From Solirubrobacter phytolaccae (GTDB lineage Bacteria; Actinomycetota; Thermoleophilia; Solirubrobacterales; Solirubrobacteraceae), in contig NZ_JAPDDP010000019.1 of assembly GCF_027587195.1 (NCBI RefSeq), forward strand, positions 1 through 64,000: a stretch of DNA of 64,000 bases. Direction: 5' to 3'. Each line of letters opens with the position of its first letter. Position 1 is the first letter of the stretch. Below the pieces are notes generated by a model. It searched no databases. It worked only from the letters and a program-made list of their open reading frames with translations, and was not told the DNA's origin. The translations under genes were made by a program, and so were the position numbers. Shown here piece by piece: positions 13,914 through 35,142 of the stretch.

Positions 13914-14453
13914 CTACTCAGTAGAAGGACTGGACGAAGGTATGACCTTCAGCCCGTCGATTAACACCCGCAGCATCCGTCGCGCGCGCTCGCCGTCGGT
14001 GACCTTCCACACCGCCCCGATCATGCCCCGGACATCGTCGGCGTCCACATCGGCGCGGATCGTCCCGGCCTTTACGCCTGCACCGACGAGCAGCTCGATC
14101 GCGCCCGGGATCTTGCCGACCGTGGCCTCGCGCATGTCGGCGGTGAGCACGTCGGCCATCCCGCGCTTGGTCGCCGTGTAGTCGACGAAGCGGTCCATCC
14201 AGCGGGCGAGCGCCTCGTCGGGCGGGAAGGACGCGAGCAGCTCGTCCGCGGCGGCGCGCAGGTCGTCGACCTCGGCGGCGTAGGCGGCGGCCACGAGATC
14301 CTCGCGCGTGGGAAAGTGGCGATAGAGCGTGCCGATCCCGACGCCCGCCCGCTTGGCCACGGCCTCGAGCGAGGCGCCGGACCCGCGCAGGGCGAACTCC
14401 TCCGCGGCGGCGGAGAGCAACTTCTCGCGATTTCGGGCGGCGTCGGCGCGCAT
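13914..14453 (-). CDS. TetR family repressor
   Basis: A 179-aa regulator. The N-terminal helix-turn-helix spans residues 8-55 ([20 protein letters not shown], then [11 protein letters not shown]). The C-terminal part is a helical ligand-binding domain. The start at ATG 14453 places the conserved [14 protein letters not shown] at residue 8, as usual; the frame is open for 16 more codons into the operator region. It is divergent from the SDR gene, with two matching operators between them, so it most likely represses both. Confidence 0.88.
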
Positions 14454-33711: not shown

Positions 33712-34358
33712 GCACGCCGTTGACGACGAACGTGATGATCGCCGACGACCACCCGCTGATCCGCACCGGCATCCGCAAGGTGCTCGACGCGGCGCCGGAC
33801 CTGCGGGTCGTGGCGGAGGCGAGCGACGGGATCGAGGCGACCGAGCTGGCGCTGCGGGAGGACGTCGACCTCGCGATCCTCGACGTCGCGATGCCGCTGC
33901 GCACCGGGCTGCAGGCCGCGCGAGAGCTGGCCAAGCGCCGCCCCGAGCTGCGGATCCTGATGCTCTCGATGCACGACACCGAGGACTACTGCTTCCAGGC
34001 GCTGAAGGCCGGCGCGTCCGGCTACGTCCTGAAGACCGTGGCGGATCGTGAGCTCGTGGACGCGTGCCGGGCCGCGATGCGCGGCGAGCCGTTCCTCTCC
34101 CCGCCCGCAGTGCGCTCGATCATGCGCGCGTACCTGGAGAGCCCGGGGGAGGCGGTCGAGCATCCGCTGACCGACCGTGAGCTGCAGGTGGTCAAGCTCG
34201 TCGCCGAGGCGCACACCAACGAGCAGATCGCGCGGCTGCTGGTGATCAGCCCGCGTACGGTCGAGCGCCACCGCGAGAACATCCTCGCCAAGCTGGGCAT
34301 GCGGGACCGCGTCGAGCTCACGCGCTGGGCCATCCGCCACGGGCTCGTGGAGCCTTAA
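33708..34358 (+). CDS. NarL/FixJ family response regulator
   Basis: A 216-aa regulator: a receiver domain with the acidic pair in IADDHP (residues 11-16), phospho-acceptor Asp59 in LAILDVAMPLR and Lys near 108 in GYVLKTVADREL; then a LuxR-type helix-turn-helix (LTDRELQVVKLVAEAHTNEQ, then ISPRTVERHRENILAKLGM). It is the cognate partner of the kinase just upstream. Targets are unknown; palindromes at 32714-32739 and 34361-34374 are candidates. Confidence 0.92.
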   Translation: MSTPLTTNVMIADDHPLIRTGIRKVLDAAPDLRVVAEASDGIEATELALREDVDLAILDVAMPLRTGLQAARELAKRRPELRILMLSMHDTEDYCFQALKAGASGYVLKTVADRELVDACRAAMRGEPFLSPPAVRSIMRAYLESPGEAVEHPLTDRELQVVKLVAEAHTNEQIARLLVISPRTVERHRENILAKLGMRDRVELTRWAIRHGLVEP

Positions 34359-34360
34359 AA

Positions 34361-34388
34361 CCCCCATACGGGGGACCGCAAAGCGGTC
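34361..34388 (+). terminator. Two tandem hairpins after the response regulator
   Basis: CCCCC-ATAC-GGGGG (34361-34374) runs straight into GACCGC-AAA-GCGGTC (34374-34388), starting 2 bp after the TAA. They probably stop or stabilise the kinase-regulator message ahead of the riboswitch. The first resembles the TCCC-ATAC-GGGA dyad at 9018-9029. No T-run follows. Confidence 0.5.
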
Positions 34389-34476
34389 TGTCGGTGCGCA
34401 GACCTAAAGCGATGCAGCACTGCAGCCGAGACTTCTTCTAGGTCGCAGTACGAAGTCCTTCTTCACGCAAGGCACT

Positions 34477-34575
34477 TCCCCACGACAAAGGCACACCCGC
34501 TGTGAAGCGGCGTCGCAAAGCTACGGGGCTCCTGCCTCCACAGGAGCGCGCCGGGCTGCCGAACGGGTCTGGGGA
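34477..34575 (+). promoter_or_regulatory. Cyclic-di-GMP-I (GEMM-I) riboswitch
   Basis: The aptamer reads ACAAAGGCACACC (34485-34497), a stem CCGCT/AGCGG capped by the GNRA loop GTGA (34497-34510), the conserved GCAAAGCTACGGG (34515-34527), a second stem GCTCCTG/CAGGAGC (34528-34547), and GCCGGGCTGCCGA near 34550-34561. An outer helix TCCCCA (34477-34482) with TGGGGA (34570-34575) closes it. These are the marks of class I c-di-GMP riboswitches. Downstream, CTGGG (34569-34573) can pair instead with CCCAG (34596-34600), which abuts the AGGGGG Shine-Dalgarno sequence (34599-34604), so ligand binding probably frees translation of the CAP gene (inference). Confidence 0.85.
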
Positions 34576-34611
34576 GCTGCATTTTCCATGCCCGTCCCAG
34601 GGGGTTCAGTC

Positions 34612-35142
34612 ATGCGCAGCATCCGTCAGCTCGTCGCCACGTCAGTCGTCGCCGTCTCCGCCTTCGCCGCCGCTCCGACGGTCGCCGAGGCCGCCGCGTG
34701 CAAGGGCGCCGACACCGTCCCGTCGGCCACGTCGCACGAGACCCACGCGACGCTCTGCCTGCTCAACGAGCAACGCCGCGCTCACGGCCTGCGCCCGCTG
34801 CGCCTCGACGGCAAGCTCAACCGCGCCGCCCGCGGCCACGCGCAGGACATGGTCGCCAAGCGCTACTTCGCGCACGAGTCCCGCAACGGCGCGACGTTCG
34901 CGACCCGCATCAAGCGCACGGGCTGGACCAAGGCCCGCCGCTCGTACTCGATGGGCGAGAACATCGCCTGGGGCGGCGGCTCGCTCGCCACGCCGCGCGA
35001 GATCGTCAAGAGCTGGATGAACAGCGCCGGCCACCGCGCGAACATCCTCGACCGCGGCTTCCGCTACATCGGCATCGGCATCGCCGCCGCCACGCCCGAG
35101 GGCGGCGCCGGGGCCACCTACGCCACCGACTTCGGCGGCTGA
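34612..35142 (+). CDS. Secreted CAP (SCP/PR1-like) domain protein
   Basis: A 176-aa exported protein. The signal peptide is residues 1-29 (MRSIRQLVATSVVAVSAFAA, cleavage after AEAAA). The CAP domain follows: LCLLNEQRRAHGLRPL near residue 49, HAQDMVAKRYFAHES near 81, MGENIAWGGG near 114 and WMNSAGHRANIL near 134. Bacterial CAP proteins are extracellular and act in cell-wall or surface roles that are poorly known. ATG 34612 follows an AGGGGG. Control by the upstream c-di-GMP riboswitch is very likely. Confidence 0.92.
   Translation: MRSIRQLVATSVVAVSAFAAAPTVAEAAACKGADTVPSATSHETHATLCLLNEQRRAHGLRPLRLDGKLNRAARGHAQDMVAKRYFAHESRNGATFATRIKRTGWTKARRSYSMGENIAWGGGSLATPREIVKSWMNSAGHRANILDRGFRYIGIGIAAATPEGGAGATYATDFGG

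What the first reader, a model, noticed from the sequence alone, without database searches (positions are those of the whole stretch)
34477..34612. Class I cyclic-di-GMP riboswitch controlling a secreted CAP-domain protein, with a readable switch
The conserved cores (GCAAAGCTACGGG and GCCGGGCTGCCGA), a GNRA-capped stem and two further stems are all in the right order upstream of the CAP gene. CTGGG at 34569-34573 belongs both to the closing helix and to an alternative stem with CCCAG at 34596-34600, next to the Shine-Dalgarno sequence. That predicts translation ON when c-di-GMP binds, and links second-messenger level to cell-surface remodelling.
Basis: partly seen in the sequence, partly recalled or inferred. 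Interest (0 to 1): 0.75.

Follow-up and report, generated by a model that had tools for sequence, protein, structure and literature searches.

The report
c-di-GMP riboswitch before CAP gene
A soil bacterium (Solirubrobacter) has a genuine RNA sensor for the signal molecule c-di-GMP in front of a gene for an exported CAP-domain protein, and the promoter that makes this RNA looks like one that the same signal also controls, so one signal may gate one gene twice.

Summary
34480-34563 is a c-di-GMP-I aptamer (RF01051, 55.1 bits, cut-off 35), 48 nt before an exported CAP gene (34612-35142; PF00188), in Solirubrobacter. It is one of five copies in the genome, and 6 of 7 genomes of the genus have one before this CAP orthologue. 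CTGGG does lie in the closing helix P1 (34472-34486/34567-34580). Its alternative partner is not CCCAG (pair probability 0.03) but a 33-nt hairpin, 34563-34595, that swallows the P1 3' strand and recurs in five orthologues. Folding does not fix the sign: ON fits 5/5 orthologues with short 3' context, but longer context is mixed.

Beyond the finding: the leader is preceded by a conserved sigma28/WhiG-type promoter (TAAA-N16-GCCGAGAC, 34405-34432). Such promoters precede 40 of 136 related aptamers (shuffles 0.8). The genome also carries WhiG, RsiG (the c-di-GMP-dependent anti-sigma) and 61 GGDEF matches. The testable idea is that c-di-GMP gates this gene at the promoter and again in the mRNA. 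The aptamer itself is a new member of a known class.

The parts
34405..34408 (+). -35 element TAAA of a sigma28/WhiG ('flagellar')-type promoter, 16-nt spacer
   Evidence: best match (2 mismatches in 12 with the -10); CTAAAG invariant in five orthologous loci including one without aptamer
34425..34432 (+). -10 element GCCGAGAC (consensus GCCGATAA)
   Evidence: GCCGA invariant in five orthologous loci; consensus as quoted in PMC8325347
34472..34486 (+). P1, 5' strand (GCA c UUCCCCA c GAC); UCCCC here can alternatively pair with the SD
34480..34563 (+). c-di-GMP-I aptamer (RF01051), positions 1-87; P2 34496-34511 with GTGA loop, P3 34528-34547
   Evidence: 55.1 bits (cut-off 35); same place found
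34567..34580 (+).
   Evidence: P1 forms first in stepwise 3' extension (0.89-0.96 at ends 34576-34592)
34563..34595 (+). anti-P1 hairpin (ACGGGU . UGGGGAG loop UUUUCCA . GCCCGU), mutually exclusive with P1
   Evidence: z -2.65; pairs 0.82-0.93 in the full ensemble; the equivalent found in four orthologous leaders
34596..34600 (+).
   Evidence: pair probability about 0.03; 63/120 swaps as good
34599..34604 (+). Shine-Dalgarno AGGGGG, 3-4 nt behind the hairpin
   Evidence: sequence; similar hairpin-SD spacing in five orthologues (listing)
34612..35142 (+). CAP (SCP/PR1-like) protein, 176 aa, N-terminal signal-peptide-like segment by eye
   Evidence: PF00188 72.4 bits; nearest solved structure 4ifa

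Best explanation
The stretch is the 5' leader of a CAP gene: a class I c-di-GMP aptamer plus a two-state expression platform. Shown by sequence and comparison: the aptamer, the P1 helix, and a downstream hairpin that uses the same strand as P1, so only one of the two can form. Inferred: when c-di-GMP binds, P1 is held and the hairpin cannot form; without c-di-GMP the hairpin takes the P1 3' strand and frees the C-rich P1 5' strand, which can pair with the SD. That would make it a translational ON switch (about 0.5). The opposite sign (bound P1 frees CCCGU/CCC to pair with the SD: OFF, about 0.4) is nearly as likely. Also inferred: the leader is transcribed from a sigma28/WhiG-type promoter. 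Because the genome encodes WhiG and the c-di-GMP-dependent anti-sigma RsiG, c-di-GMP would then gate the gene at the promoter as well as in the RNA.
For: Aptamer: (55.1 bits, cut-off 35); five copies in the genome; 61 GGDEF matches in the same genome. CAP link: 13 of the 35 aptamers in the seven genus genomes precede a CAP gene, in two orthologous groups; 2 of the 7 CAP matches of the own genome have one. Platform: P1 of 11-13 bp, -15.6 to -18.8 kcal/mol, in 5/5 orthologous leaders; competing hairpin in 5/5, z -2.65, -4.66, -3.27, -2.34, -1.07; P1 forms first and the hairpin takes over as the chain grows. Promoter: CTAAAG, GCCGA and AGGTC are invariant in the orthologous upstream regions, also in S. 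soli, which lacks the aptamer; 40 of 136 aptamers have such a promoter within 160 nt (shuffle mean 0.8), 0 of 126 control windows inside the genes. WhiG/FliA: two over cut-off. RsiG: PF22802 73.7 bits with an E-x3-S-x2-R-x3-H-x3-D motif.
Against: No binding, probing or expression data. Swap tests on five orthologues are weak (P1 10/120, hairpin 4/120, 5'-strand:SD 14/120). SD accessibility does not give a consistent sign. Full-leader folding is no better than shuffled. The exact pattern TAAA-N15/16-GCCGA occurs 28 times in the genome against 13 for its backward control, so the window site alone is weak without its conservation. Two sigma factors of this family exist, one in a flagellar cluster, so the promoter may serve FliA and not WhiG. 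WhiG held by RsiG at high c-di-GMP fits an ON riboswitch poorly at steady state.
Confidence: 0.6

Rival explanations
1. Same RNA, opposite sign: a 1-2-3-4 switch in which ligand-held P1 (1:2) releases CCCGU/CCC (3), which covers the SD (4), so c-di-GMP turns translation OFF.
For: In P1-forced ensembles the SD pairs with the platform in part in all five orthologues (0.11-0.63, +5 context); with 35 nt of coding context three of five are more closed when P1 forms. Coherent with RsiG holding WhiG at high c-di-GMP (PMC8325347, passages). In the same order 41 of 127 copies have the start codon within 15 nt of the aptamer, where the SD adjoins or lies in P1, which predicts OFF.
Against: With short context SD opening goes the other way in 5/5. 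The local CCC:SD hairpin is short.
Confidence: 0.4
2. One reading: CTGGG pairs with CCCAG without ligand and occludes the SD; c-di-GMP gives ON.
For: Both motifs are at the stated coordinates; CTGGG is in P1; the sign may be right (short context).
Against: Pair probability 0.03; 63 of 120 swaps as good and the G004 leader has CTCAG in place of CCCAG; the hairpin over the same strand is far stronger.
Confidence: 0.06
3. Transcriptional control: the 34563-34595 hairpin works as an intrinsic terminator that P1 prevents.
For: The geometry (hairpin overlapping the P1 3' strand) is that of a terminator/antiterminator; hairpin -15 to -25 kcal/mol in four of five leaders.
Against: No T run follows it; 0 terminator-like sites found in 34300-34640; the SD begins a few nt later.
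Confidence: 0.1
4. A relic or decoy aptamer without regulatory effect.
For: One genus member (S. soli, G005) keeps the CAP gene and promoter without any aptamer.
Against: Aptamer core, P1 and hairpin are kept in five diverged leaders.
Confidence: 0.05

Closest known systems
c-di-GMP-I riboswitch (GEMM-I, RF01051)
   Same: Full-length match above gathering score, same core order, GNRA-capped P2
   Different: 11-nt tetraloop receptor deleted; leader fed by a sigma28/WhiG-type promoter
c-di-GMP-I-GGC variant (RF03167)
   Same: Three of the five own-genome copies pass its cut-off; the window copy is a relative in the same clan
   Different: Window copy 52.1 bits, cut-off 59: not a member by that rule
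RsiG-(c-di-GMP)-WhiG sigma/anti-sigma switch of Rubrobacter (PMC8325347; passages read)
   Same: Same promoter consensus; PF22802 RsiG and WhiG family sigma present; type IV pilus genes also have the promoter here
   Different: The paper's main text has no occurrence of 'riboswitch'; here the promoter feeds a c-di-GMP riboswitch; WhiG binding untested in Solirubrobacter
Bc2 riboswitch before 'cap' of Bacillus thuringiensis (PMC4933901; search listing only)
   Same: c-di-GMP riboswitch before a gene called cap
   Different: That Cap is a collagen adhesion protein, not a CAP/SCP-domain protein; the names coincide

Membership tests
c-di-GMP-I riboswitch RF01051 | Score at or above the gathering threshold, full-length | tested here: met
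   55.1 vs 35 bits, positions 1-87 of 87
c-di-GMP-I riboswitch RF01051 | Conserved ligand-site letters; G at the position equivalent to G20 of Vc2 (that this is the first G of GGC is recalled; G20 as selectivity factor: PMC9262584 passage) | tested here: met
   GGC, GCAAAGC and UGCCGAA match consensus in the alignment
c-di-GMP-I riboswitch RF01051 | GNRA tetraloop with 11-nt receptor in P3 (feature of classic members, recalled; not required by the Rfam cut-off) | tested here: not met
   GTGA loop present, CUAA/UAUG receptor positions deleted
c-di-GMP-I riboswitch RF01051 | Binds c-di-GMP and changes expression | not testable with these tools
   needs probing and reporters
c-di-GMP-I-GGC RF03167 | Score at or above 59 bits | tested here: not met
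   52.1 bits
sigma28/WhiG-type promoter | TAAA - GCCGATAA with at most two mismatches (rule used in PMC8325347) | tested here: met
   2 mismatches, 16-nt spacer; elements invariant in orthologues
sigma28/WhiG-type promoter | Transcription start just downstream | not testable with these tools
   no RNA data
RsiG-WhiG c-di-GMP switch | WhiG-family sigma and RsiG with c-di-GMP motif in the genome | tested here: met
   TIGR02479 288.1 and 215.5 bits vs 189.6; PF22802 73.7 vs 27
RsiG-WhiG c-di-GMP switch | RsiG sequesters WhiG with c-di-GMP and this controls the CAP promoter | not testable with these tools
   inference from Rubrobacter
CAP superfamily (PF00188) | Pfam gathering score | tested here: met
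   72.4 vs 21.1 bits

The most novel reading that the evidence does not exclude
In Solirubrobacterales one second messenger gates the same genes twice: c-di-GMP controls the sigma factor through RsiG-WhiG at the promoter, and a c-di-GMP riboswitch in the leader controls the resulting mRNA, for type IV pilins and exported CAP proteins. In one relative (G054) the RsiG-like gene itself sits 32 nt behind a c-di-GMP-I aptamer, which would add a feedback loop. Depending on the sign of the riboswitch the pair is either a double lock at high c-di-GMP, or a filter that stores untranslated mRNA at low c-di-GMP and releases a burst when it rises.
Probability: 0.45. Interest if true: 0.75.

Novelty: new variant of a known kind. 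Interest (0 to 1): 0.55.

Why it matters
c-di-GMP regulation is usually studied one receptor at a time. A promoter read by a sigma factor of the RsiG-regulated family that feeds directly into a c-di-GMP riboswitch would be a two-stage circuit with one input, and each stage can be broken separately by small mutations. It also gives a basal, unicellular actinobacterial order a concrete c-di-GMP target list (pilins, CAP proteins, a subtilase, glycoside hydrolases).

Tried and rejected
Terminator reading: no T run. First expression-platform model over all copies used a wrong 3-bp P1 for the CAP group; its CAP rows are superseded. In one search the hairpin halves were cut at the midpoint, which damages the own pairing of L044 and L096, so 4/120 is only a rough number. 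Swap test for the direct class: own pairing not better than swapped (274 of 2000), because all SDs are nearly alike; so SD-in-P1 rests on 22 of 41 best helices and on anti-SD words in 20 of 41 direct against 15 of 81 long leaders. For the long class the same test is clear (0 of 2000). cGAMP reading: G kept, not pursued. A degenerate DNA search for the RsiG motif failed (9 hits, 9 in control); RsiG was then found with the G054 protein.

Copies left out: one search lists 150 matches in 62 of 101 genomes; 136 were analysed. Not fetched: two at contig ends (G032:C355, G034:C2), G082:C40 (overlooked) and the 11 weakest. Of the 136, 9 got no target gene by my GC3-based calling. G001 and G006 are near-identical and related genomes repeat one another, so counts are not independent. 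Paper searches cover open-licence PMC papers only; in these I saw no paper on c-di-GMP riboswitches of Solirubrobacter or on a WhiG promoter feeding one. The paper that I recall as the source of RF03167 is not held.

Full report
What is there. The whole-window Rfam scan returns a single hit at gathering threshold, RF01051 c-di-GMP-I at 34480-34563 (+), 55.1 bits against a cut-off of 35. The next gene, ATG at 34612, encodes a 176-aa CAP protein with a signal-peptide-like N-terminus judged by eye. The upstream in-frame ATG at 34588 lies inside the hairpin described below and is out of frame in G002. The organism is a Solirubrobacter: the closest named relatives of the CAP protein are S. taibaiensis, S. 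deserti and S. soli. The variant Rfam family RF03167 (c-di-GMP-I-GGC) scores 52.1 against a cut-off of 59, so by Rfam's own rule the window copy belongs to RF01051; three of the five own-genome copies do pass RF03167.

Is it part of a regulon? The own genome has five copies; 62 of 101 relatives have at least one and 14 unrelated control genomes none; in the phylum 129 of 296 sampled genomes have one. I fetched and oriented 136 of the 150 copies. 127 received a target gene: 35 type IV pilin-like, 16 in the CAP cluster (15 clear, L068 weak at 48 bits), 21 of one exported family without a Pfam hit, and smaller groups including a subtilase, a cellulase-like and a GHL15-like protein. In the seven genus genomes 13 of 35 copies precede CAP genes of two orthologous groups. 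The window group has an aptamer in 6 of 7 genomes. The seventh, G005, keeps the CAP gene (61% identity) and the downstream kinase (78%) but shows no aptamer up to E 0.1. A further 3 of 20 scanned loci (19 CAP loci plus S. soli L167) carry an RF03167 hit near the CAP gene (L144, L157, L161). The genome has 61 GGDEF matches.

How the leader could switch. P1 in the window is 34472-34486 / 34567-34580: 13 pairs with one bulge and one mismatch. Four orthologous leaders form the same P1 with other letters in its outer part. Directly behind the aptamer lies a hairpin, 34563-34595, whose 5' arm contains the P1 3' strand; the two are mutually exclusive. Equivalent hairpins occur in all five leaders (-15.3, -24.7, -17.2, -17.6, -10.8 kcal/mol; z -2.65, -4.66, -3.27, -2.34, -1.07). 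When the 3' end is extended step by step, P1 forms first (0.89-0.96 at ends 34576-34592) and the hairpin prevails once the leader is complete. The energy cost of keeping P1 is 3.2-4.4 kcal/mol in the window and 6.6-11.4 in the four others, which ligand binding would have to pay.

Sign. With the hairpin formed, the freed 5' strand pairs with the SD (0.36-0.96 in five leaders with 5 nt of coding context), and forcing P1 opens the SD in all five. With 20 nt of context it opens in two, closes in one and is flat in two; with 35 nt it opens in one, closes in three and is flat in one. I therefore give ON about 0.5 and OFF about 0.4.

A promoter that may read the same signal. Upstream of the aptamer stands TAAA (34405-34408), 16 nt, GCCGAGAC (34425-34432): two mismatches from the flagellar/WhiG consensus TAAA - GCCGATAA quoted in PMC8325347 (passages). 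In an alignment of five orthologous upstream regions the invariant letters cluster in CTAAAG, GCCGA and AGGTC (with a few further columns, some at P1), and the promoter elements are also present in S. soli, where the aptamer is missing. The G002 leader, not in that alignment, matches the promoter worse (4 mismatches). Over all copies, 40 of 136 have such a promoter with at most two mismatches within 160 nt, against a shuffle mean of 0.8, and 0 of 126 windows inside the target genes do. It is a feature of the long leaders (33 of 81) rather than of leaders with the start codon within 15 nt of the aptamer (3 of 41; Fisher 1e-4). Pilins (21 of 35) and the CAP cluster (10 of 16) account for most. 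Against this, the bare pattern TAAA-N15/16-GCCGA is only twice as common in the genome as its backward control (28 vs 13), although the fuller pattern ending GCCGATA is 7 vs 0.

The own genome has two FliA/WhiG sigma factors over cut-off. One lies in a flagellar cluster whose genes also carry the promoter; the other stands apart from it. It also has an RsiG of the single-motif kind (PF22802, 73.7 bits), as do all seven genus genomes and 55 of 61 relatives by similarity. In Rubrobacter the RsiG-(c-di-GMP)-WhiG complex controls type IV pili, and RsiG is reported from Conexibacter and Patulibacter (PMC8325347, passages); the word riboswitch does not occur in that paper's main text. Whether RsiG acts on this promoter in Solirubrobacter is inference.

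Verdict. The aptamer is an ordinary, convincing member of a known class. The new part is the pairing of a sigma28/WhiG-type promoter with a c-di-GMP riboswitch in one leader, which makes a two-stage c-di-GMP gate testable with simple mutants.

Noticed in passing
L082:2155-2484 (-), genome G054: An RsiG-like gene (PF22802, PDB hits 7lq2-7lq4) starts 32 nt behind a c-di-GMP-I aptamer: the anti-sigma factor may itself be riboswitch-controlled.
   Followed up: partly
35 pilin leaders, e.g. L004, L012, L047: GCCAG just upstream of the aptamer and CTGGC between aptamer and start codon: both in 25 of 35 pilin leaders, 0 of 47 other long leaders. Some of the rest show matching changes (L053 GTCAG, L107 GCCAAGG with its complement). 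Looks like an outer helix of pilin-type c-di-GMP riboswitches; I did not search the literature for it.
   Followed up: partly
41 of 127 leaders, e.g. L028, L055, L081, L084: Start codon 15 nt or less behind the aptamer, so the SD adjoins or lies in the P1 3' strand (22 of 41 best helices include it): a compact design that predicts OFF with c-di-GMP.
   Followed up: partly
L140:1395-1500 and L167 (S. soli): CAP orthologue with the promoter and the platform sequence CTGGGGAGC but no aptamer; TTCCCA and TGGGGA stand 7 nt apart, as if the aptamer had been cut out between the P1 strands.
   Followed up: partly
window 34430-34457: Inverted repeat GACTTC - GAAGTC between the predicted -10 and the aptamer; possible operator or start-site structure.
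   Followed up: no
window 14050-14074 (-): Another TAAA-N16-GCCGA match in the window; its gene was not examined.
   Followed up: no
L071 (G024) and L084 (G057): Two consecutive pilin genes, and two consecutive exported-protein genes, each behind its own identical aptamer copy.
   Followed up: no
L002, L009, L010, L018, L024, L040, L041: A second CAP group with its own aptamer in all seven genus genomes, with a different downstream platform (two hairpins by eye).
   Followed up: no
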